From IMG/VR virus record IMGVR_UViG_3300006914_000013, positions 1 through 64,000 of that record: a stretch of DNA of 64,000 bases, one strand, 5' to 3'. Under the pieces are notes generated by a model, which was not told the origin of the DNA, ran no database searches, and saw only the letters and a program-made list of their open reading frames with translations. The DNA comes from a virus. Positions 1,255 to 57,253 of the stretch are shown here, one piece after another (the first letter of the stretch is position 1; every line of letters begins with the position of its first letter). Both the position numbers and the translations under genes were made by a program.

Positions 1255-1449
1255 TCAGTCGTCGACGGCTTCCGTCACCGCGACTTTTTCCGCCTGTATG
1301 CGGTTGTAGATTTCTTCGCGATGCACTTCGACGCCCTTGGGTGCGGCAATGCCAATGCGCACTTGCAGGCCGCTGACACCGAGCACGGTGATGCGGATGT
1401 CGTCGCCAACCATGATGGTTTCGTGAACGCGGCGGGTCAGTATCAACAT
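1255..1449 (-). CDS. csrA: CsrA/RsmA-family translational regulator
   Basis: 64 residues beginning [17 protein letters not shown], followed by [24 protein letters not shown] split over the rest of the domain. This is the full CsrA fold: residues Leu4 and Arg6-7 of the first strand and the VHREEI segment with the RNA-contacting Arg near position 44 are all present. CsrA dimers bind GGA motifs in mRNA leaders and usually block ribosome entry. I chose this ATG because it restores the canonical N-terminus and follows AAGGAG. The leader reads ACAAGGAGAAGGACATG, which itself resembles a CsrA target, so autoregulation is plausible. First gene of the leftward operon; Pseudomonas hosts carry their own RsmA, so this copy could mimic or override it. 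Confidence 0.93.
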
Positions 1450-2022: not shown

Positions 2023-2052
2023 TTGAACACACGAACAATATTCGCGTATACT
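2023..2052 (+). promoter_or_regulatory. Sigma-70-like promoter for a small RNA
   Basis: A -35 box TTGAAC (2023-2028) and a -10 box TATACT (2047-2052) are separated by 18 bases. Transcription would begin near 2058, just ahead of a set of stems that ends in a terminator. The same -10 hexamer occurs at 4814-4819. Confidence 0.55.
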
Positions 2053-2057
2053 TTTTA

Positions 2058-2168
2058 GACCCGGTCTCGTATCCCGCCGACGAAAGCAGAATTCCCCGAG
2101 ACCTTGACTGGAGGTGCTTGTAACACCCGCCAGTCCGATGAGCCCTCGCCTAACAGCGGGGGCTTTTT
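2058..2168 (+). ncRNA. Putative structured small RNA
   Basis: Three helices can be drawn. Stem A pairs GGTCTCG (2063-2069) with CGAGACC (2097-2103). Stem B pairs GACTGG (2106-2111) with CCAGTC (2130-2135) and continues as GGTG (2113-2116) with CACC (2124-2127). A terminator follows: GCCCTCGC (2142-2149) with GCGGGGGC (2156-2163) and then TTTTT. With the promoter at 2023-2052 this gives a transcript of roughly 110 bases. No open reading frame with a ribosome site lies inside it. I do not recognise the RNA family. A regulatory antisense RNA, a protein-binding decoy or a leader are all possible. Confidence 0.5.
2142..2168 (+). terminator. Rho-independent terminator
   Basis: Eight-base-pair stem (2142-2149 with 2156-2163, one G-T pair), six-base loop CTAACA, followed by TTTTT at 2164-2168. 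It ends the putative small RNA that starts near 2058. Confidence 0.7.
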
Positions 2169-2198
2169 CGTTTATGGTCAATAGGATACGGAGCATTA

Positions 2199-2234: not shown

Positions 2235-2505
2235 CTTGACATTCACAAAAGTGCCATCAAAAGGCCCGTCTTGTCGGACAATTTCTGGCGCCAAAGCCTT
2301 GTCAGAAAAGGTTCCCAGCACAAGCGAAAAAATAGTTAAAAAACTTTCGCGAGGGGGTCAAAACACCCGGTTTTGAGGCCTCTGTTGCCTCGATTTTGAA
2401 GCAACGCAAAATTTTTTCGCGATCCTGACCTAGTCTTAAACCCAAGGCCGCGAGTGTTTCACCCATCCGAAGACGGCCGAGCTGATTTTCTGCATAGGTC
2501 TCCCC

Positions 2506-4525: not shown

Positions 4526-4776
4526 TCGAACATTGCTCCCCTGATCAGTTCGTGGCATTGCGTTTGGGTGTACAGCCGCTTTGAACCGAGGGGCACCCAG
4601 ACCCCGTCAATTCGTACCCGGTAGTACCGGCCCCGCTGGTTCAAGATGACGGGTTCGCCGTCGCTGTTATCAAATTCCTCGGTCGGAAACTGCAACGCCG
4701 AGAACAGTTCAAACTTGGTGGCGCTGCCGTTACGCCGAACCCGAACAACCGTGTCGGGTCTCCGTACTTCTCCCAT
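4522..4776 (-). CDS. Hypothetical protein, SH3-like character
   Basis: 84 residues from the ATG at 4776, which follows a strong AGGAGG; a longer version from 4812 has no comparable site. The chain looks like a small beta-barrel: TVVRVRRNGSATKFELF, then RGRYYRVRIDGVWVPLGS. Transcribed leftward and coupled to the membrane-protein gene. No family assigned. Confidence 0.6.
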   Translation of the reverse strand: MGEVRRPDTVVRVRRNGSATKFELFSALQFPTEEFDNSDGEPVILNQRGRYYRVRIDGVWVPLGSKRLYTQTQCHELIRGAMFE

Positions 4777-4813
4777 TTCAGCCCTCCTGGACCGAGTAAA
4801 ACTGAACCCCACC

Positions 4814-4819
4814 TATACT
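4814..4819 (+). promoter_or_regulatory. Possible -10 element of the late operon
   Basis: TATACT at 4814-4819 matches the -10 box of the small RNA promoter. The expected -35 region (about 4791-4796, ACCGAG) is poor, so an activator may be needed. Transcription would start near 4826, immediately before a strongly folded leader that precedes the terminase genes. Confidence 0.35.
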
Positions 4820-4828
4820 GGGAAATAC

Positions 4829-4923
4829 CTTGCCGCGTATTTGCGGCAAGTCAAGCCGGGTGCAGGATACAGCCAGAGGCCTGATTACAGGCCCGCCGTC
4901 CATAAGGACACTGTAGCACCCGG
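4829..4923 (+). promoter_or_regulatory. Structured leader: hairpin plus three-way junction
   Basis: First a hairpin CTTGCCGC (4829-4836) with GCGGCAAG (4843-4850). Then a three-way junction. The outer helix is CCGGGTGC (4856-4863) with GCACCCGG (4916-4923), continued by TACAG (4868-4872) with CTGTA (4911-4915) after an unpaired AGGA. Inside it are GGCCTG (4878-4883) with CAGGCC (4888-4893) and GTCC (4898-4901) with GGAC (4906-4909). The region leads into the first late gene. It could be a cis-regulatory RNA or a CsrA target through the exposed AGGA. The class is not recognised. Confidence 0.5.
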
Positions 4924-4948
4924 GTTTTGCTACCTTGGGGGCACCATC

Positions 4949-5344
4949 TTGTCTCAATCCAGTGTGATTTCTCGCACGGGGCGCGGCTCCGGCATGTCTG
5001 CCGAAGAAGAAGCGTTCCAGAAGCTCGCCGCCAGCCTGATCAAACTGCCCTTCAACCCCGCCGTATTGTGTGGCTGGCGGGCGTTTGCGGAATGGTTGGA
5101 AATCCTCTCCGGGCTGAGCCTGGTCACGGACGGCCTAGCCGCCGATGGCCGCGGCCCCGCCGAGTTCATCAAACAGGCCACCGCCTGCGGCTGGGTGCGT
5201 TTCGAACTGACCCGCGAAACCATCATGGTCCGCTCAAAGATCGCCTACACCGTCGAGCCGCAACCGGTGCTGCTGATGCAGTCGACTGGGCTGGACCCGG
5301 ACGAAGTGCGGATCTACGACAGCAAAATTCTACGGCGGGGCTGA
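4949..5344 (+). CDS. Hypothetical protein, first gene of the late operon
   Basis: 131 residues from TTG at 4949. That start is favoured by TTGGGGG seven bases upstream, the same ribosome site used by the portal, decoration and capsid genes; GTG 4964 and ATG 4994 are alternatives. The conserved-looking part begins MSAEEEAFQKLAASLIKLP. It is Trp-rich and acidic, and ends SKILRRG. One base separates its stop from the next gene. It precedes the probable small terminase, so a packaging role is possible but unproven. Confidence 0.55.
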   Translation: MSQSSVISRTGRGSGMSAEEEAFQKLAASLIKLPFNPAVLCGWRAFAEWLEILSGLSLVTDGLAADGRGPAEFIKQATACGWVRFELTRETIMVRSKIAYTVEPQPVLLMQSTGLDPDEVRIYDSKILRRG

Positions 5345-5345
5345 C

Positions 5346-5927
5346 ATGAGCGAACTGTCTGATTTCGACGCGCCGGCCGTGCTCAAAGCGCCGCCGGAAC
5401 CGCCAAAGGCTGAAGGTTTGCAGCCAATGCCGGACGCCCTGGACGGCCCGATTGTGGGCATCAGTCCGCGTTCCGCGATGTTTGCCGAGACCGACATGGG
5501 GCGCACCGCCACCGGCCTGAGCGTGTTCATCCACGACTTCCTGCCGCGCCTGAACAAAGACCAGCTGCACAAGCTGGTGTCCGCCCTGCCCGCTGGCACC
5601 CTGGAAGTGACCGGCCAAGGCTACGGCGCCGACTTCTCGCTGGCCGATGAAATGGGCTTGCAGATCGTCGCGGTGCAGAACCTGCGGCAGCACGTTTTCC
5701 CCAACGGCCACCTGCGCGAAGGCTGCAACGTGCGCGAGGCAAAGGAAGTGCTGACCACCTGCAACATCATGATCAAGACCCTGATGGACAACCACGCCCG
5801 GATCATGTCGATGGAGCGCATGCGCGCCGTCGAAGCGGCGACCGTGGACATCCTGGTCGAGCTGAAAGATGAGCTGAAAGAGCAGTTCCTGGAACGCCTG
5901 CGCGTTCGGCTGGAGGGGCTGCAATGA
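5346..5927 (+). CDS. Probable terminase small subunit
   Basis: 193 residues. The N-terminus is Pro-rich and disordered; the C-terminal third is a long charged helix (ILVELKDELKEQFLERLRVR) suited to oligomerisation. The call rests mainly on position: directly upstream of, and overlapping by 4 bases (ATGA), the large terminase gene. Small terminases recognise the packaging site and form a ring. No helix-turn-helix was clearly visible, so this is an inference. Confidence 0.5.
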   Translation: MSELSDFDAPAVLKAPPEPPKAEGLQPMPDALDGPIVGISPRSAMFAETDMGRTATGLSVFIHDFLPRLNKDQLHKLVSALPAGTLEVTGQGYGADFSLADEMGLQIVAVQNLRQHVFPNGHLREGCNVREAKEVLTTCNIMIKTLMDNHARIMSMERMRAVEAATVDILVELKDELKEQFLERLRVRLEGLQ

Positions 5928-7732
5928 GCAGTGGCTTGCGCCCGGAGCTGGAAGTTTATCTGGAGCGCCTGCGCATGCAGGCTTATGACGCCCGGGACTT
6001 CAGCGGCATTCCCAAGTGGCTGACCAACCACACCACCGACCCGAAAGACCCGAGCCGGCCGTGGACCTTCCACGAACACGAATACCAGCCTGAGATTCTG
6101 GCCGACACCACCGAAGACGTGTCGATGCAGAAGTGCAGCCAGGTCGGCGCCTCGGAAATCTGGATTCGCATGATGTTGGCGATGATGGCGATCGCCAAGA
6201 AAATCACGATTATCTACATTATGCCGACCTCGGCGCTGGCCAAGCGCTTTGCCCAGGGGCGAATCAACCCGGTGTTGACCGACTCCCGGACCCTGACCGC
6301 GCTGGTCGACAAGGACCTCAACAACAACGAGCAGAAGCGCATCGGCCGCTCGCTGCTGTACATCAGCGGCACCTTCGGCAGCGTCTCGGCGATTTCGGTA
6401 CCGGCCCAGGCGCTGTTCCGTGACGAAGTGGATTTCTGTAACCAGCGGGTGCTGACCACCTTCGACTCCCGCCTTGGCCACAGCAAGGAAGGCGAAGGCC
6501 TCAAGCGCAGTTTCTCCACCCCCACGGTGTTCCGCTACGGCATCAACCTGATGTTCGAAAAGGGCAGTCAGGCGCACTACGCCACCAAGTGCCCGCACTG
6601 CCACCAGTACATGACCCTCGACTATTTCCGCGACGTGGTCATCCCCGGTTACGACGGCTCGCTGCGGGACTTCGAACGCTCCGACCTGCTGAACCCGGCG
6701 ATCAACATTCAAGATGCCTACTTCCTCTGCTCGCTGTGCCGGCACAGCCTCAAGCACCGCGACTTCATCGACCCGTCCCGCCGCCGCTGGATTCACACCT
6801 TCCCCGACCGCACCGACAAACACAGCTACCAGGTGATCCCGATCGACGTGCCGGCGATCAACCCGCTGGCGCGCACGCTGGCCTTGCTCGGCGAGTACGA
6901 GAACAAAAAGGACTGGGTGAACTTCAAGCTCGGGCTGCCGTTTGAGGATGCTCAGTCGTCGTTTCTTGACGAAGAAATGGTCAACTTCGCCACCACCCTG
7001 CACATTCCGCGTCCCGAAGACGCCGAGTTCACGGGCCTGCGCGTGACCTCCGGCACCTACATGGGCCTCGACGTGGGCAAGACCTGCTGGCTGACCATCA
7101 CCATCCCCAATGATCGCGGCGGCGAAGACATTCTGTATCAGGAACGTATCCGCCAGGACGGTGACAACTACGTCGGCAAGCGCACCATGTTGTTGTTCAA
7201 GCTGTTCGGCTGTGTGTGTGGGGTGGTCGACTCCGGCCCCGACTCGACGCTGGCCCAGCACTTGGTCAAGGAAGGTGGCGGCCTGATCTACGCCTGCCGC
7301 TACCACACCGGCCCAGCGAAAACCCTCAAGACCCTCGACGTACTGATTGCCCGCGACGAAGTCGAAGGCCTGGTGACGGTCAACCGCACCGCGCTGTACG
7401 ACAACCTGGTGCGCCGGGTGAACAAGGGCGGCACGCGCCTGACGAAGAACAGTTCGGAGTACGAGCTGGCCCGCGCCCACCTGCGGGCGTTCAAGCGGAT
7501 CGAGACCCACGACCAGGAAAGCGGGGAAACGATTGTGCAGTGGGTGGCCACCGCCGACGACCACTACACCCACTCGCTGGGCTACGCCGACGTGGCCCGG
7601 CGGATCATCGCCGTACCGCCGAAAGAGCTGGTGGTGCCCTACATCCCGACCCTCGGGCTGGTGCGTTTGAAGTCCGAAGAAGACCTCAAGAGCGAATCCA
7701 ACCTCTGGCTGCCCCCCGGTTTTAAACGCTAA
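5924..7732 (+). CDS. Terminase large subunit, GpA type
   Basis: 602 residues, normal length for lambda gpA-type packaging motors. It pumps DNA into the prohead and cuts concatemers. The N-terminal ATPase carries a divergent Walker A (KCSQVGASE, about residues 68-76), comparable with the lysine-shifted motif of lambda gpA, and a Walker B-like ALFRDEVD. Two CxxC pairs (CPHC near 223, CSLC near 270) form the zinc-like knuckle typical of GpA. The C-terminal nuclease has YMGLDVGKT and GVVDSGPD acidic motifs. GpA-type terminases usually act on cos sites. A good GGAGG ribosome site precedes the ATG. Confidence 0.92.
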   Translation: MSSGLRPELEVYLERLRMQAYDARDFSGIPKWLTNHTTDPKDPSRPWTFHEHEYQPEILADTTEDVSMQKCSQVGASEIWIRMMLAMMAIAKKITIIYIMPTSALAKRFAQGRINPVLTDSRTLTALVDKDLNNNEQKRIGRSLLYISGTFGSVSAISVPAQALFRDEVDFCNQRVLTTFDSRLGHSKEGEGLKRSFSTPTVFRYGINLMFEKGSQAHYATKCPHCHQYMTLDYFRDVVIPGYDGSLRDFERSDLLNPAINIQDAYFLCSLCRHSLKHRDFIDPSRRRWIHTFPDRTDKHSYQVIPIDVPAINPLARTLALLGEYENKKDWVNFKLGLPFEDAQSSFLDEEMVNFATTLHIPRPEDAEFTGLRVTSGTYMGLDVGKTCWLTITIPNDRGGEDILYQERIRQDGDNYVGKRTMLLFKLFGCVCGVVDSGPDSTLAQHLVKEGGGLIYACRYHTGPAKTLKTLDVLIARDEVEGLVTVNRTALYDNLVRRVNKGGTRLTKNSSEYELARAHLRAFKRIETHDQESGETIVQWVATADDHYTHSLGYADVARRIIAVPPKELVVPYIPTLGLVRLKSEEDLKSESNLWLPPGFKR

Positions 7733-7756
7733 ACCCCTGAGTATTGCGGGTTTTTT
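7731..7756 (+). terminator. Weak terminator-like hairpin after terminase
   Basis: AAACCC (7731-7736) pairs with GGGTTT (7748-7753) and three more T follow. The stem is only six pairs with an 11-base loop, so it may attenuate rather than stop transcription between terminase and portal. Confidence 0.35.
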
Positions 7757-7851
7757 GGTCTTCGCAACCACCGTTTTGGAAACCACGTCTACGCTTTACG
7801 AATAAGAGCGGGTTTCACCATAACCGCCGGGCCTTTGGGGGGCCAACACAA

Positions 7852-9303
7852 GTGCCTGCACCGACCTCGCAACCTATTGTTTTGCCGCGCTCGCTCGTGA
7901 ACAAAGCCGTGACTGAAACGGTTTTTGATCGCGCCGGGGCGGACCAGGTTGTGCCCCGGGATAACCGCCAAACGGTCAACGAAGCGATCAGTGCCAGCCG
8001 CGCACGGAACAACCTGATCGGCTCGATCCGCGACCTGTATTCCCGCGAAGGGACCTTCTCGTCAGCGGCATTCAGTTTTGTCGAAGTTGCTCTTTCCGGT
8101 TACAGCGCCAAGGCCTACAACACCCAAACCGGCCAATTCGATCTGGCCGGTAGCCTGATGGCTCGGCAGATCATCGCCGGCTTCGACACCCTTTTTGACT
8201 ACAGCCAGGGCTACGGCGACAAGACTTCGTTTGAGAGTCTGCTGGAGCAGTCCCTGCTGGAAGTGGTGCTGACCAGCGCCCTGTGCCAGGAACTGGTGCT
8301 GGATAAGGCGCGCTTCCCTACCAAGATCAACACCATTCCATTCGAAACGATTGATTGGAAGAACGTCGGCAGCGGCCCGAAAGCCAAGAAGGTACCGCAG
8401 CAGAACCGCAGTCAGGGCGACCCGGTGCTGCTCGATGTGCCCACGGTGTTCATCAGCGAATTGCACCGTCAGGCGAACCGCGCTTACTCCGACTCGATGC
8501 TCTCGGCCGGGGTGAACAACACCTACACCTACGGCGAATTTCTGGAAGAAATGCGCCGTGCCGTGCGCCGCCAAGGTCACGGCCGTCTGGTGCTCAAGAT
8601 CAACATCGAACAGGTGATGGCCGCGCTGCCCCCTGAAATCAAGGCGGACAAGACCAAGTTGCAGAACGCGCTCGATGCGGTGAAAACCAAGATCGAGGAA
8701 AACTTGAAGGGCATCAACCCGGAAGACGCGCTGGTCATTTACGACACCGTGACCCCGGACATGCTCAAGGCGCAGGGCGAGAAAAGCGACTACGTGCCGC
8801 TGATCGAAACGCTCTCTGGCCTGCTGGCCACCTCGCTCAAATCCAACCCGTCGATGCTCGGCCTGCGCATGCAGGGCTCGCAATCGTTGAGCAACACCGA
8901 AAGCCTGGTGTTCCTCAAGATCGCCAACGCCGCCCGCCGCCCGGTCGAAACCAACCTGTCGCGCATCCTCACGCTGGCCGCCCGCCTGTACGGCGCCGAC
9001 GTGTACATCAAGTTCCGCTTCGACCCGATCAACCTGCGCCCGGATCTGGAGCTGGAAGCGTTCAAGACCATGCGCCAGGCGCGGACCCTTGAACTGTTGT
9101 CCGAAGGCTTTTTGACCGACGACGAAGCAGCTTGGGACCTCGGCACCGGCCCTCGCGCCCCGGGCGCCCCGCCGCTCGCTGGCACCGGCTTCCGCCGTGG
9201 CAGCAAGGGCATCGACGCCAACGCCGCGAGCCCGAACGAAGACCCGCAGGGCCGCGCCCTGCAATCGAATGAACCGAAAAAAGCCGGGGGCGCCAGCCAA
9301 TGA
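7852..9303 (+). CDS. Portal protein
   Basis: 483 residues from GTG 7852, which lies behind TTTGGGGGG; this matches the ribosome sites of neighbouring head genes. Upstream in-frame codons back to 7744 look noncoding and overlap the hairpin. The protein is mainly helical with a long central segment and a Pro/Gly-rich C-terminus (RAPGAPPLAGTGFRRGSKG). Its length and place between large terminase and head protease fit a dodecameric portal, the DNA gate and docking point for the terminase. Overlaps the protease gene by 4 bases. Confidence 0.75.
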   Translation: MPAPTSQPIVLPRSLVNKAVTETVFDRAGADQVVPRDNRQTVNEAISASRARNNLIGSIRDLYSREGTFSSAAFSFVEVALSGYSAKAYNTQTGQFDLAGSLMARQIIAGFDTLFDYSQGYGDKTSFESLLEQSLLEVVLTSALCQELVLDKARFPTKINTIPFETIDWKNVGSGPKAKKVPQQNRSQGDPVLLDVPTVFISELHRQANRAYSDSMLSAGVNNTYTYGEFLEEMRRAVRRQGHGRLVLKINIEQVMAALPPEIKADKTKLQNALDAVKTKIEENLKGINPEDALVIYDTVTPDMLKAQGEKSDYVPLIETLSGLLATSLKSNPSMLGLRMQGSQSLSNTESLVFLKIANAARRPVETNLSRILTLAARLYGADVYIKFRFDPINLRPDLELEAFKTMRQARTLELLSEGFLTDDEAAWDLGTGPRAPGAPPLAGTGFRRGSKGIDANAASPNEDPQGRALQSNEPKKAGGASQ

Positions 9304-10805
9304 CCGCCAAACGCAGCAAGACACCTCGCGGCCAAAGCCTGCAACTCGGCGACATCTGGTATGGCGACGACGACAGCATGCTATCCGCCCGCACCAGCCT
9401 GACGCAGCTGGCCGCGCTCGACCCTAAGTTGTATGCCGGCGACGACGAAGACGAAGACGAGAGCTTCGACGGGTTCCCGGAATACAGCTACATGCTCACC
9501 CGCCATGGCCACATTGCGGTGCTCAGCATCAGCGGGAGCATGGTCAGCAAGGAAACTTTCTACAACCGCTACGTGGGCCTGTGCTCGTACCAGGAAATCC
9601 GCAACGCCGCGATCGTCGCCGCTGAGTCCGGCTGCCGGGGCCTGCTGCTGGACATCGACACCAGCGGCGGCAGCGCCGAGGGCATCGGCGAGCTGTCGGA
9701 CTTCCTGACCGAGTTCGATAAGAACGTGATGCCGGTTTACACCTACACCGGTACCAAGATGCTCAGCGCCGGTTACTGGATCGGCTGCATCGGCCGAAAA
9801 GTTTTCAGCTCCGCGATGGCCCTGGACGGGTCGATCGGCGTAGTGACCGCACATTTCAGTTACGCCCGGATGCTCAAGGAACAGGGCATCGACGTAACCA
9901 TGCTTCGCCAGGGCGAGTTCAAAGCGTTGGGCTCCCCCTACGAAAAGCTGGACGACAAGGCTCGGGCCGACATCGAGGCGCGCATGGGGAAGTTCTACGA
10001 ACTCTTCCTCGCGCACGTCTCCAAGCACCGGAGCATCGACGTACCGGCACTGATCGAAACCGCTGCCGAAGGTCGCGTCTTTATGGGCGAAGACGCTGTA
10101 GCAGTGGGGCTAGTAGACCAAATCACTACCTTCGACAAGGCGGTTTCCGCCGTGATGAAAGCGGTGGGTGATCGACAGCCACAGGTCTCTGTACTCACCC
10201 CATCAACCTACTTAGGTGTGGACCATATGAAGCGCAAATTGACTGACGCGGGCCAAGCGGCCGTCGCTTCGGGGATGGCTGAGCAGCTGGCCTTGGCTGA
10301 TCCGAAGCTCTCCGAAGAAATCAAAGAACCAACCAAAGAAGAACTGGAAGCCGCCGAAGCTGCTGCTGCGCTCGCCGCCGCTGCTGACCCGGTTGTTCCA
10401 GAACCGAAGGTTGAGCCAGAAGCTGCCCCGGCCCCGGCCGCGAAAGCGGAACAACTGTCCGATCAGACCCTGGACAAAATCATCGCGCTGTCGACCGAAC
10501 TGGCCGATGCCCGGGGTGAAGTCAAGCGCCTGCAAGCCAGTGAAACGGAACGCTCGGCCAGCATGACCACGCTGATGAAAATCTGTGGTGATGCCATCAA
10601 CCGCATGGAATTGCCGTTGAGCCGCAGCCCGACCTCGTTCACCGGCATGAGCGCGGAAACCCTGATCGGCACCTACCACCGCACGCTCTCTGACTTCAAC
10701 AGCCGGATGAAGATCGGCGCGCAAGCCGAAGTGCCGGGCGAAGGCGATTTGGGTACGCCCAAAGCACAGGCCTACGCGCCCAGCGCTGACTGCGTGAAGC
10801 TCTAA
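9300..10805 (+). CDS. Head maturation protease (S49/SppA-like) fused to scaffold domain
   Basis: 501 residues. Residues about 70-290 form an S49 protease: GLLLDIDTSGGSAEG, the nucleophile Ser in KMLSAGYWIG (near 161), LDGSIGVV and the general-base Lys in RQGEFKALGSPYEKL (near 209). From about 310 the chain becomes acidic, Ala/Glu/Pro-rich and helical, as in scaffolds. This matches lambda gpC, where the protease cleaves scaffold during prohead maturation. An in-frame ATG at 10227 behind a GGTGTGG could yield the scaffold alone, like lambda Nu3. Confidence 0.88.
   Translation: MTAKRSKTPRGQSLQLGDIWYGDDDSMLSARTSLTQLAALDPKLYAGDDEDEDESFDGFPEYSYMLTRHGHIAVLSISGSMVSKETFYNRYVGLCSYQEIRNAAIVAAESGCRGLLLDIDTSGGSAEGIGELSDFLTEFDKNVMPVYTYTGTKMLSAGYWIGCIGRKVFSSAMALDGSIGVVTAHFSYARMLKEQGIDVTMLRQGEFKALGSPYEKLDDKARADIEARMGKFYELFLAHVSKHRSIDVPALIETAAEGRVFMGEDAVAVGLVDQITTFDKAVSAVMKAVGDRQPQVSVLTPSTYLGVDHMKRKLTDAGQAAVASGMAEQLALADPKLSEEIKEPTKEELEAAEAAAALAAAADPVVPEPKVEPEAAPAPAAKAEQLSDQTLDKIIALSTELADARGEVKRLQASETERSASMTTLMKICGDAINRMELPLSRSPTSFTGMSAETLIGTYHRTLSDFNSRMKIGAQAEVPGEGDLGTPKAQAYAPSADCVKL
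10227..10805 (+). CDS. Possible in-frame scaffold protein (internal start)
   Basis: 192 residues in the same frame as the C-terminal part of the protease gene, beginning MKRKLTDAGQAAVASGMAEQ. The composition changes sharply here to Ala/Glu/Pro-rich with a predicted helix (LDKIIALSTELADARGEVKR). The ribosome site (GGTGTGG) is only moderate. The call rests on analogy with lambda gpC/Nu3, where a nested start gives free scaffold. Confidence 0.4.
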   Translation: MKRKLTDAGQAAVASGMAEQLALADPKLSEEIKEPTKEELEAAEAAAALAAAADPVVPEPKVEPEAAPAPAAKAEQLSDQTLDKIIALSTELADARGEVKRLQASETERSASMTTLMKICGDAINRMELPLSRSPTSFTGMSAETLIGTYHRTLSDFNSRMKIGAQAEVPGEGDLGTPKAQAYAPSADCVKL

Positions 10806-10830
10806 CAAAACTTTTTTGGGGGAATGACCA

Positions 10831-11310
10831 ATGACCACTTTTGTTTACAACGAGAGCGTCACCGACGCGATGAAGGACACCATTTCGGCTGCCCTTGGTG
10901 CCGCCGCGTCCAGCGGTATCGGTAACAACGACCTGAACAAGGCCTACAAGGCGGGCACGGCGCAGAACTATGTGCCTTGCGCAGACGGTGACGCGATCGA
11001 GGGTTTCCTGACCGCGATCGAGCCTTTCACTGTTAACGCCGGCTTCGTCTTCGGCTCGGTCCAGCGCCGCGGTCGCAAGGTGGTGCAGAACGGCGCAGCT
11101 CAGGCCACGTTGGCAGTGGGTGACTACGTCGTCGCCTTCACCCAAGTCGCAATCGGCACTGCCGGTTTTGCGCAGGTGAAGAAAGCGACCGCCACTGCGG
11201 CCACCGACGACGGCGCGCTGAACCAGGCGGGGCTGTTCGCATGGCGCGTGATCCGCATCGTCACTGGTACCGGCGTTGCCGGCGACCAGGTTTTGATTGA
11301 GCGCGTTTAA
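10831..11310 (+). CDS. Probable head decoration protein
   Basis: 159 residues: a short helical N-terminus, then Gly/Ala/Val-rich beta-type sequence (VVAFTQVAIGTAGFAQ, RVIRIVTGTGVAGDQVLI). It starts behind TTTGGGGG and lies between the protease/scaffold and the major capsid protein. That is where lambda gpD-type capsid-stabilising proteins are found. No sequence signature was recognised, so the name depends on position and composition. Confidence 0.5.
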   Translation: MTTFVYNESVTDAMKDTISAALGAAASSGIGNNDLNKAYKAGTAQNYVPCADGDAIEGFLTAIEPFTVNAGFVFGSVQRRGRKVVQNGAAQATLAVGDYVVAFTQVAIGTAGFAQVKKATATAATDDGALNQAGLFAWRVIRIVTGTGVAGDQVLIERV

Positions 11311-11343
11311 CGCTCATTCCGACACATCTTTGGGGGAAACGAA

Positions 11344-12546
11344 ATGAGCGATCTCACCACTACGCTGAAACTGCGTAACACCGAAGGTAACCTCGTTGAG
11401 GTGCCGTTCGACGTGCGCATGTACGCGCAGGCATCCGAAAAGGGCTTGACCCTGTCGCAGCACCTGAACCAGATGTACGCAGGCGCCACCGACCTCGTTA
11501 AGTACGGCGACGTGTTGCAACAGGCCATGCTGCACTCCGGCATGTACACCTCGACCGACAGCCGCATGGGCATGCACCCGCCGAGCATGAAACAAATGTT
11601 CGACACCGGCATCCAGATGGGCTCGATCACCCGCGGCGACGGTTCCGACCGTGCCACCGTGGCTGGCCGCATGCTCTACCCGGAAATCCTGATGCGCGCC
11701 ATCGAGTCCAAGCTGCGCGACGACTACAGCGACCTGCTGGGCACTTGGTCGACCTTCATCGCGCAGACTCAGACCGTGACCGGGCCAAAGTTCGACCAGC
11801 CCGTGATCGACGTAACCCGTCCTGAAGGCTACTCGTCGATGCCGATCGCTCAGCTGGCTGAGCCGGACGTGATGCTGTCCATCACCACCGCTGCCCGTTC
11901 GAACAGCATTCCAACCAAGTCGATTGGTCTGCTGATTTCCGACCAGGCCGCGCAAGCGTCGACCCTGGACCTGGTCAACCTGGCCATGACTGCCCAAGCC
12001 CGCGCTGAGCGCGTGCGCATGGTGCAGGCGGACATCGCTGCAATCGTCTCCGGGGATGTCGACCGTGGCGAGACCGCGAAGACCTCGTTCAAGGCCAACA
12101 CCCTGGACTCCTCGATCGTGGCGGCTGGCACCCTGACCCATCGGGCTTGGGTGAAGTACATGCACAAACAGCGCCGCAGCATGCTGACCCTGGGCGCGAT
12201 CTGCGACCTGGACACCGCGCTGGCAATCGAGGCGCGCTCGGGCAAACCGACTCGCGACACGGTGTTCGTGCCACAGGCCGAAGGCTTCAACCAGGGTGTG
12301 AGCATCGAGAATCTGACTGGTCCAGATCCTCGCCTGCTGATCGTCGATGACGGCGTGATCGCCGCCAACACCTTCGTCGGCATCGACACCCGCTTCGCCC
12401 TGCGCCGCGTCATCAACATCTCTGCCGCCTACTCGGCGGTTGAGCAGTTCGTGCTGCGCCGTGCGACCGCGTTCCGTGTCGATTTCGGGGAAATGACCCA
12501 CACCTTATACCCAGATGCTTTCAAGGTGATGACACTCACGCTGTAA
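11344..12546 (+). CDS. Major capsid protein
   Basis: 400 residues, expected HK97 fold. The first 90 residues are helical and could act as a delta domain removed by the protease (many Met and Gln). The rest has the mixed alpha/beta pattern of capsid subunits, ending FRVDFGEMTHTLYPDAFKVM. Strong TTTGGGGG ribosome site seven bases before the ATG. It follows the protease/scaffold and probable decoration genes in standard order. A hairpin just after the stop may shape mRNA stability. Confidence 0.82.
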   Translation: MSDLTTTLKLRNTEGNLVEVPFDVRMYAQASEKGLTLSQHLNQMYAGATDLVKYGDVLQQAMLHSGMYTSTDSRMGMHPPSMKQMFDTGIQMGSITRGDGSDRATVAGRMLYPEILMRAIESKLRDDYSDLLGTWSTFIAQTQTVTGPKFDQPVIDVTRPEGYSSMPIAQLAEPDVMLSITTAARSNSIPTKSIGLLISDQAAQASTLDLVNLAMTAQARAERVRMVQADIAAIVSGDVDRGETAKTSFKANTLDSSIVAAGTLTHRAWVKYMHKQRRSMLTLGAICDLDTALAIEARSGKPTRDTVFVPQAEGFNQGVSIENLTGPDPRLLIVDDGVIAANTFVGIDTRFALRRVINISAAYSAVEQFVLRRATAFRVDFGEMTHTLYPDAFKVMTLTL

Positions 12547-12555
12547 ATGGAATAA

Positions 12556-12573
12556 GGGGGCCGCAAGGCCCCC
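12556..12573 (+). promoter_or_regulatory. Stable GNRA-capped hairpin after the capsid gene
   Basis: GGGGGCC (12556-12562) pairs with GGCCCCC (12567-12573), closed by a GCAA tetraloop. No T-run follows, so it is more likely an mRNA-processing or 3' protective hairpin than a terminator. It could help give the capsid message higher abundance than the connector genes. Confidence 0.5.
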
Positions 12574-12597
12574 AACCCCAACCGCAGGAGCCGAGCC

Positions 12598-12822
12598 ATG
12601 TCCCGTACCACTGAAAAACCGCAAGACGCACCCAAGGCATCCGCACCTGCCAAGGCAGACGGCTGGCCAAAATTTCTCAAGTCGACGACCCCCTACGGCT
12701 ACACCGACCCGGATTCGAACATCCACTACGGCCCGGTGACCCCCGTTAAAGTCGACGCCGCTCCAGCGGACGGCACCTGGCTGCACGGCCAGTTGCTCGC
12801 CGGCTTGATCAGCGAAGCGTAA
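12598..12822 (+). CDS. Small hypothetical structural protein
   Basis: 74 residues with a Lys/Ala/Pro-rich, probably disordered start, then an aromatic segment (TPYGYTDPDSNIHYGPVTP). GCAGGAG provides the ribosome site. It lies between capsid and connector genes. Small proteins at this position are often head components or head-completion factors; nothing further can be assigned. Confidence 0.6.
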   Translation: MSRTTEKPQDAPKASAPAKADGWPKFLKSTTPYGYTDPDSNIHYGPVTPVKVDAAPADGTWLHGQLLAGLISEA

Positions 12823-12832
12823 GGAGACGCCC

Positions 12833-13312
12833 ATGGCCAACCTCGGCAGCTACACCAACACCGACGCGGTGCGCGGCTGCCTTGGTGTGGATCAGGACGA
12901 TTGCCCGGATCGCTACATGGTGGATTCGCAGGTCGCGCTGGAACTGAGCCTCGACCTCGACGCTTGGTTGCCGACGCATGCCGCGCTGTACACCGCTGGC
13001 ACGACGGGCACACCGACCACCGCTGCCAAGGCGATCGCCGACCGGATCAAGCTGTATGCGCAATGGTTCGTGGCGCTGGAATTCGCCAACCGCCCGCTCG
13101 CCGTGCCGCAGATCGTCACGGACGGTAAGGCCCAGCTCGACCGATTCAAGATCGACTTGAGCAAGGTGGCAGAACTGGCCGCTGGCAAGGTGGCGAAGTA
13201 CAAAAACGAGTTGCAGGCGGCGGTCGAGGGTTTGCCAGCCCTAGCGCCGTACACCAACTACGTCAACGTGGCGACCCCTGGCGCCGACCCTGTGACCGAG
13301 GTGATCCAGTAA
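12833..13312 (+). CDS. Probable head-tail connector protein
   Basis: 159 residues, mostly helical at the N-terminus, which fits the small helical adaptors (HK97 gp6 or lambda gpW analogues) that follow the capsid gene. AAGGAGA precedes the ATG. Stop and the next start overlap by one base. No family motif was recognised, so the role is inferred from position. Confidence 0.5.
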   Translation: MANLGSYTNTDAVRGCLGVDQDDCPDRYMVDSQVALELSLDLDAWLPTHAALYTAGTTGTPTTAAKAIADRIKLYAQWFVALEFANRPLAVPQIVTDGKAQLDRFKIDLSKVAELAAGKVAKYKNELQAAVEGLPALAPYTNYVNVATPGADPVTEVIQ

Positions 13313-13917
13313 TGGCCGACCTCGCCCGCGCCCTCGGCCGCTTTGCCCACACCCCCTTGCTGGGGTGGAACGCTGCGACCAGCGTTTGGGACGATACCGG
13401 CCTGCGCGGGCGCTTGCAGGTCTACGACCGGTTTATCACCGAGCGGGATTTCGGGCAGCGCAAACGCATCCTGACCTTGGCCGGCGACCAAACCTTGCCG
13501 GGCGCCTACTCGGTGATCCGCCTCGGTACCAGCCCGACCGTGTACATGCTGGAAAGCCTGAACCAGGACATCGAAGGCGAGGCCGTGTATGGCACGACCT
13601 TCGCCCTGCATCAGGCGCCGTTCCATGTGCGGGTCTGCCGCGAGGCCGTCACCATTCTGCAATCCGGGGTCAAGCACAAGACCGGCGCGGAAGAAGTGTT
13701 GTTCGACACCTGGGTCAACCTGTCGCGCTACTCGGCGGTGGACTCGCGGGAATTCCCGCTGACCGACTTCACCATCTACACCGTCTACTTTCCGCGCAAC
13801 GTCGTCGCCACCACCGACATGTACGTGCGCCGGTTGGACAACGACGACGTGCTCGACATCACCGAGGTTTTCCAATCCTTGGAAATCCCAGCCGCGAGGG
13901 TCCAACGCCGTGGCTGA
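13312..13917 (+). CDS. Probable head-tail joining protein
   Basis: 201 residues, rich in beta-strand-forming stretches (KRILTLAGDQ, TIYTVYFPRN). It lies among connector genes, one base overlapping the previous gene and 8 bases overlapping the next. Size and position suggest a stopper or joining protein. The identity is inferred from gene order only. Confidence 0.5.
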   Translation: MADLARALGRFAHTPLLGWNAATSVWDDTGLRGRLQVYDRFITERDFGQRKRILTLAGDQTLPGAYSVIRLGTSPTVYMLESLNQDIEGEAVYGTTFALHQAPFHVRVCREAVTILQSGVKHKTGAEEVLFDTWVNLSRYSAVDSREFPLTDFTIYTVYFPRNVVATTDMYVRRLDNDDVLDITEVFQSLEIPAARVQRRG

Positions 13918-14383
13918 TGACTTCCCACTGATTGTGAAGGGCACCATCGACAAACTTGTGTCCGACAAGTGCGCCGCTTTGCAGGCGCAATACCCCGGTC
14001 TGGACTGGGCCGAAGTCGATGACATGCTGCAAACCGATGAGGCATTCAAAGGCGCAGGCCCTGCCCTGCTCTGGCAGTTCGGGGCGTTCGTCCCTGACCC
14101 GCGTGCGCCGCTGTACGAGATTGAGTTTTCGGTCGGGGCGCGCACCGTGGCCGACCCGGGCAACTACGCACTGATCGACCTGGTGTCGCAGATCCGCGAC
14201 GTGTTCCGGGCGGACCAGGAGTTCCAACTGTTCAACTACATCCTGCCCACGTCCTCCCCGGCGGACAACGTGAGCAAGGGTTTCGTGCGGGTGATTTCCA
14301 ACGAGATTTCGCCGCAGATGTTTGATCGCCAGTCCGGCATCCGCTACGCGGTGCTGCGGGGCAAGGCGGTGCGCTATGGCTAA
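13910..14383 (+). CDS. Hypothetical protein, possible tail terminator or connector
   Basis: 157 residues from GTG 13910, inside the end of the previous gene. It has a helical first third (GTIDKLVSDKCAALQAQ), then beta segments (LYEIEFSVGARTVADPGNY). Position before the tube gene suits a tail terminator or joining protein. No signature recognised. Confidence 0.5.
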   Translation: MADDFPLIVKGTIDKLVSDKCAALQAQYPGLDWAEVDDMLQTDEAFKGAGPALLWQFGAFVPDPRAPLYEIEFSVGARTVADPGNYALIDLVSQIRDVFRADQEFQLFNYILPTSSPADNVSKGFVRVISNEISPQMFDRQSGIRYAVLRGKAVRYG

Positions 14384-15110
14384 CAACACCAGCGTCAGCT
14401 TTGAACTCAACAAAGACGCACTGCTCGCCGTGATCATCAAACACGGGGGCACGCTGAAGGCGATCACTGAGCGCGCCGAAGACAAGCAGCGCGGCCTGGA
14501 AGTGATCGGCACCAACTTCTATCAGGCGGCGGTCGACGCGACCCAAAAGTTTCTGAACGAAGGCATCCCGGGTAACGACCAAGCCCGCAACCGGCTGCTG
14601 GTGAGCAACCCGAACTTGCCCGGTGGCAAACGCATGGCGGTCACGGTGGGCTGGAAAGCGTTGAGCCTAGCGTGGCGCGACAACAAGCGTGAACGGGCGC
14701 GGGGCAACTACGGCGGCAAGCTGCGCAGCATCGGCCCGAAGGTGTTCTGGCTCGACACCGGCACCTTGCATGCCGCCTTCGCTGAGTGGGCACCGGGTAA
14801 GGCGCGGACGATCCGTTCAAAACCAATTATTCGAATGCTGAGCAATGGGTATTTCCAAGTGGATCACCCCATTGCATTCAAAAAACTGTCTCCGGCTTTC
14901 CTAGATCAAGCGCTTCGTAGGGCGCTGATCGCGGGGGCCGCTGCGGGAAGGCGCGGGGTAGTGCTGGAACCTTTGGGGAGAACGAGCAAGCGGGACGGTG
15001 TGTACCGCGCGTTCTTGAACGAAGGCCGCCGGCCGCTGATGCGACCACTGGCCAACAGGCTGGGCAAGGCAATGCAGGAACAGATGACCAAACTACTTCG
15101 CAGGAGATAA
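14376..15110 (+). CDS. Hypothetical protein, possible minor tail/head-tail component
   Basis: 244 residues from ATG 14376, which overlaps the previous gene by 8 bases. Very basic overall, with a C-terminal Arg-rich end (QMTKLLRRR). It lies immediately before the tube protein gene, where gp10/gpZ-like tail completion proteins are frequent. That assignment is by order only. Confidence 0.5.
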   Translation: MANNTSVSFELNKDALLAVIIKHGGTLKAITERAEDKQRGLEVIGTNFYQAAVDATQKFLNEGIPGNDQARNRLLVSNPNLPGGKRMAVTVGWKALSLAWRDNKRERARGNYGGKLRSIGPKVFWLDTGTLHAAFAEWAPGKARTIRSKPIIRMLSNGYFQVDHPIAFKKLSPAFLDQALRRALIAGAAAGRRGVVLEPLGRTSKRDGVYRAFLNEGRRPLMRPLANRLGKAMQEQMTKLLRRR

Positions 15111-15114
15111 AGCC

Positions 15115-15918
15115 ATGTCTTTGGGCTCGCCAGTAACGAACAAGTTTCAGATCGGGACCGCCGAACTCCGTGTCGGTCCGATGACCTCGGCCATGAAGCT
15201 GCTCCAGACCCACTCCGTGGGCTTGGTCGACAGCTGCTCGGTCACCATCGGCCAGGAATCCGTCGACCTGGAAGGCGGTTTTCCGAAGCAACTGATGGAC
15301 TCGGCGGTGGTGCGTCAGACCGCCGAAGTGTCCACCGTGCTGCGTGAATACTCGCGCCGCAACCTGAAAATCGCGATCGGTGATGGTGTGACCACCGCTG
15401 TCGCGGACGTGGCCACCACCGTGGGCACCGCCGCTTCGGCTGCGGCCACCTCGCTGACCCTCGTTGCCGGTACCGGCATTTCGGGCAGTGACCTGATCGT
15501 GGCTTACAAGGTCAACACCCCGGAAACCGTGCAGATCCTGCGCGTGGCTTCGGTGTCGACCAACACCCTGACCCTGGACGCCTCCACCCCGCTGCTGTTC
15601 GACCTGGCGGTAGGTGACCCTGTGTTTGTGGCCAAACAAGTCGCGATCGGTGCGGTTTCCCAAACGAACTACATGGCTGCCGCCATCGTTCAGAAGGAAA
15701 ACAGCTCGGGTCGTCCGCTGGTGTGGAACTTCTGGAAGGCCTCTATCTCGGGCAACCTGGAGTACGCCACCAACTCCAGCGACTTCGCATCCACCACCAT
15801 GACCCTGAAATGCTTGCAGCCGGCAGCGGCTGAGTATGGCGTCGGGGCCAACCTGGCGCACTTGGCCAACATCATCCCGTCCCACCCTACTGGCTTCCTC
15901 GCCCTCGGCGGTAGCTAA
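15115..15918 (+). CDS. Major tail (tube) protein
   Basis: 267 residues, Thr/Ser/Ala/Val-rich with extended beta character, typical of tube subunits that stack into rings. Includes an inserted Ig-like-looking stretch around residues 95-150 (TSLTLVAGTGISGSDLIVAY). It is followed at once by a strong terminator and then by the assembly-chaperone and tape measure genes. High expression followed by transcript reduction is usual for tube genes. Good AGGAG site before the ATG. Confidence 0.72.
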   Translation: MSLGSPVTNKFQIGTAELRVGPMTSAMKLLQTHSVGLVDSCSVTIGQESVDLEGGFPKQLMDSAVVRQTAEVSTVLREYSRRNLKIAIGDGVTTAVADVATTVGTAASAAATSLTLVAGTGISGSDLIVAYKVNTPETVQILRVASVSTNTLTLDASTPLLFDLAVGDPVFVAKQVAIGAVSQTNYMAAAIVQKENSSGRPLVWNFWKASISGNLEYATNSSDFASTTMTLKCLQPAAAEYGVGANLAHLANIIPSHPTGFLALGGS

Positions 15919-15936
15919 GTCCGGGAACGCAACAGG

Positions 15937-15960
15937 GGCCGGGCGCTGCCCGGCCTTTTT
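15937..15960 (+). terminator. Strong Rho-independent terminator after the tube gene
   Basis: GGCCGGGC (15937-15944) pairs perfectly with GCCCGGCC (15948-15955) across a GCT loop and is followed by TTTTT. It should reduce transcription of the tape measure and later genes relative to head and tube genes. Confidence 0.8.
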
Positions 15961-15983
15961 CCATCAGCGATCGGAGGTGTGCG

Positions 15984-16514
15984 ATGTCGTTGTTCCGCGT
16001 CAGCAAGCCAAAGATCACCCTGCTGTTCAAAGAGATTTTGGGCGAAGTCATCGAGCAACAACCTGACTTGGCCTTGGGGCTGGCGATCGAGCTGGCCGCT
16101 GAACAGGCAAAGATGCCCTGCCCCAATCTGGAGGCCGTGGCGCAACGCCTGCTGGAAGAAAAGCTAGCCCCCGCCACCCCGACGCAGCCCGGCCCTAAAG
16201 GCAATGGCTTCGGTTCGGCGTACACCGCGTGGCTGAACTCCCTGAAAACCGACCAGCTCTGCCTGTGGCTGGCCGACTACGACCCGCAGCGGGCACAGGT
16301 CCTGTACTGCGAAGTCGACATGGACCTGGTCAAGTCCATGATCGAGATGAAAACCGCGCACGTTTGGCAAGACCTGCGCACCCGCTTTGAAGCCTGTCTA
16401 CTCGGCGCGGGCGGGAAGTTGACCAGCCAGAACGACACAGTCCACGACATCGACATGACCGACAAAGCGTCGGTGGATTCCATGATCGACATTATGAAAA
16501 AACTGGGGTTCTAA
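15984..16514 (+). CDS. Probable tail assembly chaperone
   Basis: 176 residues, helical, located between the tube and tape measure genes, the standard site for the gpG-type chaperone that coats the tape measure protein. The usual longer frameshifted product is not clear: an A-rich slippery run (GAAAAAAC) lies only five codons before the stop, and the -1 frame closes after about 25 codons. GGAGG precedes the ATG. Confidence 0.6.
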   Translation: MSLFRVSKPKITLLFKEILGEVIEQQPDLALGLAIELAAEQAKMPCPNLEAVAQRLLEEKLAPATPTQPGPKGNGFGSAYTAWLNSLKTDQLCLWLADYDPQRAQVLYCEVDMDLVKSMIEMKTAHVWQDLRTRFEACLLGAGGKLTSQNDTVHDIDMTDKASVDSMIDIMKKLGF

Positions 16515-16517
16515 GAC

Positions 16518-19500
16518 ATGGCCGGCGAAGACATTATTATCAAGACGCTGTTCCAGGCCGGTATCAAACTCGACCGCCAGGATGAACTTGAACTCCAGAA
16601 ACGTCTGTCGGCATTGGCGAAGTCGTTTGACCTCGACGTTGCCAAGCGGCAAGCCGAAGAACTCGGCGACTTGCTTAACCAGGTCAGGAAAGACCGGGGG
16701 CTGTTGCAGCGCGCCGCCACGTCGCCGGACAGGCTGACCAAAGGGCAGCAGGCGCGACTGCCCGCCGCATTCGGTCGACTCACGACCGCGCAGGAACAGT
16801 TGAACAAACTGTTCACCACCCTGAAAAACGCAGGCAACGCCGAGAGGCTTCCGGTCTTCAAGAACCTGACCGGGGTGAAAACCGTACTGAACGAAATGGG
16901 CGCGATTGCCAGTAAAATCTCGCCCCTGATCGACAACGTCACGCAGAGTTTCAAGGCCAACGCCACCGCCATGCGCAAGGCGCAGACGGATACGGTGCGC
17001 GATCAGCGCCTGCGGGAAAGTCAGGCGCGCACCGCTGAAACCCTGGAACGCGCTCGCCGTACCCGGGCGATCCAGTCGCCGGAGGGGCGCAAGGCGTTTC
17101 TCACCGCAGCCCGCGGTAACACCGGCGCGATTGAAACCGCCGCCAGCGCCAAGCAAGGCCGTGCCTTCGCCGCCTCGGCGCTGGCCGCTACAGAGCGGGC
17201 GGTGCTGCTGGAGCGCTCCCGCCCGGTGCAGGACCCTCGCGCCATCGAGCGCGCCGAGCGCAAGCTGGCCCTCTCGGCGCAGACGTTCCGCGACCTCGAT
17301 CAGCGCGCTGGCCAGCTGACCTCGATCGAGGCGCTGCGCAAAAAACAAAGCCAGCTGGACCGTGACAGCGAAATCGAGGGCCGCAAGAGCCCCGAGGCAA
17401 AGGCGGCGCTGCGTTCTGCCCTGCGTGGCGACCTGACCGCCGTTACCTCTTCGGTGGAAGCCAGCAAGGGCGCGTCCTTTGCCCTCAAGGAGTTGAACGC
17501 CCGCAAGCAGATCCACGCCCTGACCGAACAGGTTTATGGCGAGCAATCCAAAGAAGCTGAACGCTCTAGCCGTCAACTGGGCGCACTGTCGCAGGCTTAC
17601 GCCGGGCTGACCAAGCGGGTCACTGACCTGTCCGAAGTCGAGAAACTGCGCAAGACCAACAACCGCAAGGCCGATCAGCTGGCCCTGAAAGAAGCCGAAG
17701 TGGCGCAGACCCGTGCTACCCGTGGCCGCCTGCTGCGCCCCGGGCGCACCGCGCTGGAACAGGCTGGCGGCATCGGCGCCGGGGTCGACGGCTTCGGCAA
17801 TGTCGATGCAGCGAAGAAAGCCCAGGCGTTCGTCAAGGGTGAGCTGGGCGACCTGATCAAGTTGCAAAACGCCTATGCCCGAACCTTCGGCGTCACAAGC
17901 GACCAGGCCAAGACCGCGGCGGTCGAGGTCGAGCGCTATGGCGAGTTCCTGCGCAAACTGGAAACCCGTATCCAGTCGCTGGGGGCCACGGCCGACACGC
18001 AGAAACAAATCGACAAGCACGCGGAAGCGGTGCGCACCTCGGAAGAACGACGCCGCAACAACGCCCTCAAGCTGGCCAACGGCAAACAATTGCTGGAGGA
18101 AGCCAACGGCGATTTCACCGGCTACACCGACCGGCGCGCCCTCGCCCGAGCCAAGAACTTTGCCAATGCCGAGTTGACCCAGTTGCGGGCACAGCAGGAA
18201 TCGGCGGCGCGCACTGTCGGGGTGGCCAGCGGCGAGTACATCACGGCGCGCAAGGAAGGCGACGAGTTCGCCAAGACCATCGCGCTGATCGACCAACGCC
18301 TCGATCACCTGGCGACCACCATCCGCGCCATGCCGCGGCTGAGCACCTTCGACAGCGCGAACAAGCACGCGGCAGGTAAGCGGATTTATGAGACGGCCCG
18401 GGAAAACCCCAATGGGCTGGCCGAACTGGAGCCGGAACAGGCCAAGCAGGCCCGGGATTACGTGCGGGCGCGGCGCAACGAACAGGCGGCCTTCGGCAAG
18501 GGCCTGTCCAAATCCGGGGCCAGCAAAGCCGATATTGATGCGGCGGCAGTGGCGACCCGTAACCTGTCCGATGAACTGGCGGTGCTGGCCAAGGCCGCCA
18601 CCCCGGCCAGCCAAGGCATGGGCTTGCTCCAGGCGACCCTGCGTTCGTTCCTCAAGTACGCCGTGGGCTATGGCTCCCTCTACGGGTTGGCTTCGGCCAT
18701 CGTCGCGCTCGGCCGGTCGATGGTCGACCTCCAGACCGAAATGCTGGACATCCAGGCGGTTACCGGCTCGACCGATGCGCAGATGCTCAAGCTGACCGAC
18801 ACCGTCGCCCAGGTGGCGCGGACCAGCAAGTTCTCCCTGCTCGACCTGACTAGGGCGACCAAGGTTCTGGCGCAGGCGGGTATCTCGGTTGAGGAACTGA
18901 ACACCTCGCTGCAAGCCACTGCCAACTTCGCGGCGGCCACCGGGGCCAACCTTGAGGTGGCGGCGGACCTGCTGTCGACCACGCGCACGGTGTTCAAGGA
19001 GCTGTCGGACGACACGATCAGCAACCAGCTGGCCAAGGCGATCAACGTATCCAAGCTGACCGCCGAGGATCTGAAAACCATCCTGTCCCTCGGCGCACAG
19101 ACCGCCAAGTCGTTCAACCTGACCTCCGAGCAGTTCTTGGCCGCCGTGGCCACGCTGAAAAACGCAGGTCTCCGCAGCAGCACGGCGGCCACTGGCTTGC
19201 GCCAAGGCATGCTGGAAATTTTCAGCCCGGACGCCAAGCTGATCAAAGCGCTGCAAGCCCGCTACCGCGACCTCGGCGAGGAAATGGGCGCGGAAGCGGT
19301 GCGCGCCCGCTTCTTCGCGTTCAGCCGTGGCCGCTCGCCGCTGATCGCAGCGCTGACCGAACTGAAACGCTTGGGCTTCAACGATGAGGGTGCGATGGAC
19401 CTCTCGCGGGCCTTCGACATCCGTTCGACGAACGCCATTAAGGCGATGATCGCGAACCTGGAGGAACTGGCCGCCAACGAAGGCAAGATCACCTTCGGCC

Positions 19501-42554: not shown

Positions 42555-42578
42555 GCCAGCGGGCAAACGCCCGCTGGC
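42555..42578 (-). promoter_or_regulatory. Strong hairpin in the polymerase leader
   Basis: GCCAGCGGG (42555-42563) pairs perfectly with CCCGCTGGC (42570-42578), loop of six. It lies in the 80-base gap between the candidate SSB stop and the polymerase start, with no T-run. It may limit polymerase expression or protect the upstream message. Confidence 0.5.
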
Positions 42579-42600
42579 AAACCACAGCTAGCCGTGAGGC

Positions 42601-57007: not shown

Positions 57008-57253
57008 TTAAAGCCCCCCGTAGCCGTCTTTTTCCAGCGCGACCTTGATCAGCCCGCTGATGGTTTTCGGCCCGGCGGCGGTGTCCTTGTTCGACAGGCG
57101 GCGGGTTTCCAGTTCACGGATCATCGACTTCGGCAAGCTGATGGTGATCGAGGCCGGGACATCTTTCTCGCCGTCCCCCGCCACACCCGCCAAGCGTTTG
57201 GCCAAGTCCCCAGCGATCTGCGCTTGGCTTTTCTCTGCCTCTGCCTTACCCAT
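57008..57253 (-). CDS. ParG-like ribbon-helix-helix partition protein
   Basis: 81 residues. A mobile basic N-terminus (GKAEAEKSQAQIAGDLAKRL) precedes a ribbon-helix-helix: VPASITISLPKSMIRELETR, then a second helix in TISGLIKVALEKDG. Length and layout fit ParG-type centromere-binding proteins of type Ib partition systems. The gene overlaps the end of the ParA-like gene by 8 bases, the expected parF-parG order. It probably binds the repeated sites upstream of the pair and at 56281-56309. Confidence 0.65.
   Translation of the reverse strand: MGKAEAEKSQAQIAGDLAKRLAGVAGDGEKDVPASITISLPKSMIRELETRRLSNKDTAAGPKTISGLIKVALEKDGYGGL

What the first reader, a model, noticed from the sequence alone, without database searches (positions are those of the whole stretch)
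4829..4923. Three-way-junction leader before the late operon
A hairpin is followed by a junction with a 13-pair outer helix and two inner stem-loops with ATTA and ATAA loops; an AGGA is left unpaired on one side. The pairing is nearly saturated over 95 bases, which is unlikely by chance. It could be a riboswitch-like or protein-responsive control of terminase and structural genes. The AGGA suggests CsrA.
Basis: partly seen in the sequence, partly recalled or inferred. Interest (0 to 1): 0.62.

Follow-up and report, generated by a model that had tools for sequence, protein, structure and literature searches.

The report
Folded RNA heading a phage operon

Summary
Window 4829-4923 folds into a 9-bp hairpin (P1) plus a three-way junction: P2 (8 bp) and P3 (5 bp) separated by a 4-nt AGGA bulge, with two inner stem-loops. 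MFE is -49.3 kcal/mol, z -6.0, second of 3357 windows sampled from the genome. Eight distinct homologous leaders, all upstream of the same terminase genes, keep the fold. Eight of 30 pairs show compensatory changes, with at least one in every helix; shuffles gave a mean of 2.1 and slid structures at most 1. No Rfam family matches. It is therefore a new, clade-restricted structured RNA.

A conserved -10-like TATACT ends 9 nt before P1, so the element would be the 5' end of a roughly 28-kb late transcript. The Shine-Dalgarno and TTG start (4949) lie outside the fold.

CsrA is not supported: AGGA occurs in only 2 of 8 leaders, and the other GGA lies in a stem. P1 also belongs to a palindrome found at three intergenic sites, so it may double as a DNA operator. 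Best reading: a cis-acting, promoter-proximal leader, acting on RNA polymerase (put-like) or on mRNA stability. The mechanism is not shown. A second conserved phage RNA (2052-2170) turned up nearby.

The parts
4796..4819 (+). Conserved promoter-like block GTAAAAC-GAACC-ACCTATACT with a -10-like TATACT at 4814-4819; predicted start near 4826
   Evidence: All 10 leader-bearing loci keep ACCTATACT. No good sigma-70 -35 hexamer. Start site inferred, not measured.
4829..4850 (+). Hairpin P1; its core 4830-4849 is the palindrome TTGCC[G/T]C-N6-G[C/A]GGCAA, possibly also a DNA operator
   Evidence: Folds in most leaders; one compensatory pair. Two further copies in G000 at 2385-2404 and 72495-72514, all intergenic.
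4851..4855 (+). Unpaired linker UCAAG, invariant in all leaders
   Evidence: Alignments A1 and A2
4856..4863 (+). P2, 5' strand (pairs with 4916-4923)
   Evidence: GC to AU at two neighbouring pairs in L010; G-U in L003/L006; A bulge in L009/L013
4864..4867 (+). AGGA bulge, not conserved in sequence
   Evidence: AGGA only in window and L004
4868..4872 (+). P3, 5' strand (pairs with 4911-4915)
   Evidence: Two pairs with changes on both sides, plus G-U
4878..4893 (+). P4 stem-loop (loop AUUA)
   Evidence: C-G to G-C in L010 and U-A to G-C in L004; loop and stem length vary
4898..4909 (+). P5 stem-loop (loop AUAA); its GGA is in the 3' strand of the stem
   Evidence: C-G to A-U in L009
4911..4923 (+). 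3' strands of P3 and P2, followed by UUUU at 4925-4928
   Evidence: Fold; the U run varies from 2 to 5 in homologues
4937..4941 (+). Shine-Dalgarno-like GGGGG, outside the junction
   Evidence: Invariant in all leaders; not paired with the junction in most predicted folds
4949..5344 (+). p1, first gene after the leader, TTG start, 131 aa, unknown function
   Evidence: Homologues 98-71% in leader-bearing phages, 53-52% in L173 and L014; no family, no solved fold
5346..5927 (+). p2, 193 aa, in the small-terminase position, unassigned
5924..7732 (+). Terminase large subunit (GpA-type ATPase)
   Evidence: phrog_675 E 1.7e-94, PF05876 E 1.6e-16

Best explanation
The DNA 4829-4923 is transcribed as the first ~95 nt of the late (packaging and particle) mRNA and folds into a hairpin plus a three-way junction that works in cis on the transcript that carries it. 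Steps shown: a conserved fold with compensatory changes, conserved position between a -10-like box and the terminase operon, and SD and start codon left outside the fold. Steps inferred: transcription starts near 4826; the + strand is the functional one; and the junction acts early and in cis, either by binding the elongating RNA polymerase to make it processive over the 28-kb operon (put-like; about 0.3) or by protecting and insulating the mRNA 5' end, perhaps with a bound protein (about 0.35). P1 probably also serves at DNA level as an operator palindrome beside the start site, so promoter control and RNA control overlap there.
For: Compensatory changes in every helix: 8 of 30 pairs, and 7 of 21 for the junction alone, with 0 of 500 shuffles reaching these counts and at most 1 for slid structures. 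They occur in at least three lineages: L010, L009 and L004. The fold stands out energetically, and the distant leaders fold the same way on their own. Position is constant in 10 loci upstream of p1-p2-terminase. A conserved TATACT lies 9 nt upstream. Hairpin tips vary while linker and junction strands are largely kept. In L014 and L173, where p1 and its upstream region are turned away from the terminase operon, the junction is absent although p1 is kept, which fits an element serving the operon rather than p1. Core G-U cells favour the + strand 4 to 1, weakly.
Against: No transcript data: start site, strand and RNA existence are unproven. Only 8 distinct sequences, and most double changes sit in one lineage (L010). 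The minus strand folds as well. No obvious intrinsic terminators on the + strand of 4930-20000, so the need for antitermination is not visible. HK022 has no match to the model. Loss in L014/L173 could reflect divergence alone.
Confidence: 0.62

Rival explanations
1. A transcription attenuator: the P2-closed junction followed by the U run is a conditional terminator, opened by a ligand, protein or translation event.
For: GC-rich P2 is followed directly by UUUU in most leaders.
Against: The U run is 2-5 and interrupted by G or C; L009 has CCCUU. No conserved anti-terminator pairing was found.
Confidence: 0.1
2. A translational switch or protein-responsive operator controlling p1 start, including a CsrA/RsmA site.
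For: The SD lies 14 nt after the fold; the phage encodes a CsrA-family protein.
Against: AGGA is not conserved and the second GGA is paired. SD partners are local and differ between homologues.
Confidence: 0.12
3. A trans-acting RNA (processed small RNA, or a packaging RNA as in phi29) encoded next to the terminase genes.
For: Three-way junction next to packaging genes; compact fold with its own promoter-like block.
Against: No strong terminator closes it; no match to the phi29 pRNA or any Rfam family.
Confidence: 0.06
4. A DNA element, such as a packaging (cos/pac) site or repressor operators, whose inverted repeats only look like RNA.
For: Right place for a cos-type site; P1 is a repeated palindrome; its AT-rich centre occurs in either orientation at the 2385 site among relatives.
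Against: A nested three-way junction with distant compensatory changes and G-U pairs in P2-P5 is not expected of a DNA site. Remains plausible for P1 alone.
Confidence: 0.08

Closest known systems
HK022 put RNA (antiterminator RNA; PMC9378689)
   Same: Promoter-proximal phage RNA made of two stem-loop units; putL lies just downstream of its promoter; acts in cis without a dedicated protein.
   Different: put is ~70 nt, two stems 1 nt apart, on early operons, and binds the RNAP beta' zinc-binding domain. Here ~95 nt, a 5-nt linker, a three-way junction, a late operon, no sequence-structure match in HK022 and no tested RNAP contact.
CsrA/RsmA-bound 5' leaders
   Same: Structured 5' UTR with an unpaired AGGA in this one phage; a csrA-like gene in the same genome.
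   Different: The motif is not conserved and is not in a hairpin loop.
phi29 packaging RNA (RF00044)
   Same: Phage three-way-junction RNA linked to packaging.
   Different: No Rfam match; unrelated phage and terminase type; no evidence of a free RNA.

Membership tests
Any Rfam 15 family | Score at or above the gathering threshold | tested here: not met
   No match in the whole window, and none at E <= 5 for 4750-5050
CsrA/RsmA target leader | Conserved ANGGA, usually in a hairpin loop or unpaired near the SD | tested here: not met
   Unpaired AGGA in 2 of 8 leaders; the other GGA is in the P5 stem
CsrA/RsmA target leader | Binding by CsrA | not testable with these tools
   Needs a binding assay
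HK022 put RNA | Two stem-loops just after a promoter | tested here: inconclusive
   P1 plus a branched second unit start ~3 nt after the predicted start; the start is inferred
HK022 put RNA | Sequence-structure similarity to put | tested here: not met
   Best HK022 hit 11.1 bits (E 0.31), in what reads as repressor coding sequence
HK022 put RNA | Antitermination through the RNAP beta' zinc-binding domain | not testable with these tools
   Needs terminator-readthrough assays
Riboswitch | Match to a known aptamer class | tested here: not met
Riboswitch | Ligand binding that changes the structure | not testable with these tools
   Needs in-line probing or SHAPE with ligands
Intrinsic attenuator | Conserved hairpin followed by a strong U tract | tested here: not met
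   U run of only 2-5, not conserved
Conserved structured RNA | Compensatory base changes above controls | tested here: met

The most novel reading that the evidence does not exclude
A new class of promoter-proximal phage RNA that makes RNA polymerase processive over a whole late operon without a Q-type protein, combined with a DNA operator built into its first hairpin.
Probability: 0.2. Interest if true: 0.8.

Novelty: new variant of a known kind. Interest (0 to 1): 0.52.

Why it matters
Structured RNA leaders that control phage late genes are rarely described, and no matching family was found here. A conserved three-way junction at the head of a packaging and structural operon gives a compact, testable target: does late expression in these phages depend on RNA structure rather than on an antitermination protein?

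Tried and rejected
CsrA binding: rejected on lack of conservation. Rfam membership: none. HK022 put homology: none; the best hit lies in coding sequence. A short shared string (GNGGCAAGTCAAGCC) in IMG/VR gave 119 stretches, but of the 78 new loci searched none was a true homologue by covariance model. L025, found by a promoter string, is a chance match. Weak model hits at 2375-2489 and 72485-72579 are only the shared palindrome. Pairing of the nearby small RNA with the leader was no better than shuffled. Known annotated phages hold no close relative of the leader or p1. An early error: p1 was read 2 bases out of frame (from 4951); redone from 4949 (the plasmid search was not repeated).

Full report
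Observation. The 95 bases at 4829-4923 fold as described: P1 (9 bp, 4-nt loop), linker UCAAG, then P2 (8 bp), a 5'-side AGGA bulge, P3 (5 bp) and two inner stem-loops P4 and P5. The energy is far below dinucleotide shuffles (z -5.98), and the window ranks second of 3357 across the 84 kb of sequence I could read. The complement folds as well, so the strand needs other evidence.

Context. The window is part of an 84,385-base IMG/VR virus record. Downstream lie p1 (4949-5344), p2 (5346-5927), terminase large subunit (5924-7732), portal and major head protein, and an uninterrupted run of + genes to about 33402. Upstream, a gene of unknown function runs the other way (start 4776, -). The nearest named relatives of the terminase are about 32% identical, in Pseudomonas phages Lana and PMBT3, so a Pseudomonas-like host is an inference.

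Homologues and covariation. A terminase scan of IMG/VR gave 21 loci; ten of them, plus the window, carry the leader at the same place, with eight distinct leader sequences. Counting pairs on the model-fitted alignment, 96.7% of cells are standard pairs and 8 of 30 pairs show a change on both sides, against 2.1 in shuffles and at most 1 with slid partners. For the junction alone the figures are 7 of 21, 1.6 and at most 1. Double changes fall in L010 (P2 twice, P3 twice, P4), L009 (P5) and L004 (P4), so they are not one event. The alignment was fitted to the model and leans towards it, but an element-by-element reading made by hand without the model gives nearly the same changes. The divergent leaders L013, L009 and L010 each fold into the same topology on their own (z -3.6, -2.0, -3.0). 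Hairpin tips vary in length and sequence; the linker and most junction-flanking bases are kept.

Strand. Within P2-P5 the non-Watson-Crick variants are G-U on the + strand in four cells and A-C (G-U on the minus strand) in one core cell. This is weak, but it agrees with the promoter-like block upstream and the late genes downstream.

Start of the transcript. ACCTATACT is invariant in all leader-bearing loci; TATACT at 4814-4819 would place the start near 4826, about 3 nt before P1. There is no good -35 hexamer; the conserved GTAAAAC-GAACC block may bind an activator or a phage factor (inference).

P1 as operator. TTGCC[T/G]C-N6-G[A/C]GGCAA recurs at 2385-2404 and 72495-72514. All three sites are intergenic, and 3 such palindromes compare with 0.55 expected. 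At the 2385 site relatives carry the centre as GATTTT or AAAATC/AAAAAC, which suits a DNA operator better than an RNA loop. P1 may therefore have a DNA role of its own; the RNA claim rests mainly on P2-P5.

Rearranged relatives. In L014 and L173 p1 lies on the opposite strand to the terminase operon, and the operon begins from the other side of the divergent region; p1 is kept (51-53%) but the junction is not found. This fits an element that serves the late operon rather than p1, although it may be a single evolutionary event.

Mechanism. The SD (4937-4941) and TTG start (4949) are outside the fold, and their predicted partners are local and not conserved, which argues against a simple SD switch. 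The U run after P2 is short and variable, which argues against an attenuator. What remains is a promoter-proximal cis element that acts on RNA polymerase, as HK022 put does (PMC9378689), or on mRNA stability or insulation. The + strand of 4930-20000 shows no terminator-like sites, so there is no positive sign of a need for antitermination. I hold the cis-leader reading at 0.62 and the put-like mechanism at about 0.3.

CsrA. The phage has a CsrA-family gene, but the AGGA is present in 2 of 8 leaders only and the P5 GGA is paired. The CsrA part of the finding is not supported.

Known families. No Rfam match, even at a permissive threshold. The model finds nothing significant in HK022. Literature searches found no described equivalent, but the library holds open-licence papers only.

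Limits. There are few homologues, no metagenome scan was available, and there are no expression data. Early p1 searches were out of frame and were repeated, except the plasmid search.

Noticed in passing
window 2052-2170 (+): A second conserved phage RNA: sigma-70-like promoter (TTGAAC-N18-TATACT), three hairpins, and an intrinsic terminator at 2140-2165; compensatory changes across seven relatives. Best Rfam resemblance is ColE1 RNAI (24.4 bits, E 0.009, below the gathering score of 47). Possibly more interesting than the finding itself.
   Followed up: partly
window 1255-1449 (-): Phage-encoded CsrA-family protein (PF02599, phrog_9500), about 600 bp from that RNA.
   Followed up: partly
window 2385-2404, 4830-4849; record position 72495-72514: Repeated intergenic 20-bp palindrome TTGCC[T/G]C-N6-G[A/C]GGCAA, a candidate operator set shared by three transcription units.
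   Followed up: partly
L014 3338-4096 and L173 3741-4510: The p1 / divergent-gene cassette is inverted relative to the terminase operon. G000 also encodes a DNA-invertase-like serine recombinase at record position 73041-73712 (-); a link is untested.
   Followed up: partly
window 57246-57887 (-): ParA-like partition protein (phrog_164), followed by a small protein with a weak Arc-like match; the phage may persist as a plasmid.
   Followed up: no
window 42556-42579: Strong hairpin (TGCCAGCGGGC/GCCCGCTGGCA) between genes, the lowest z of the scan; probably a terminator or processing site.
   Followed up: no
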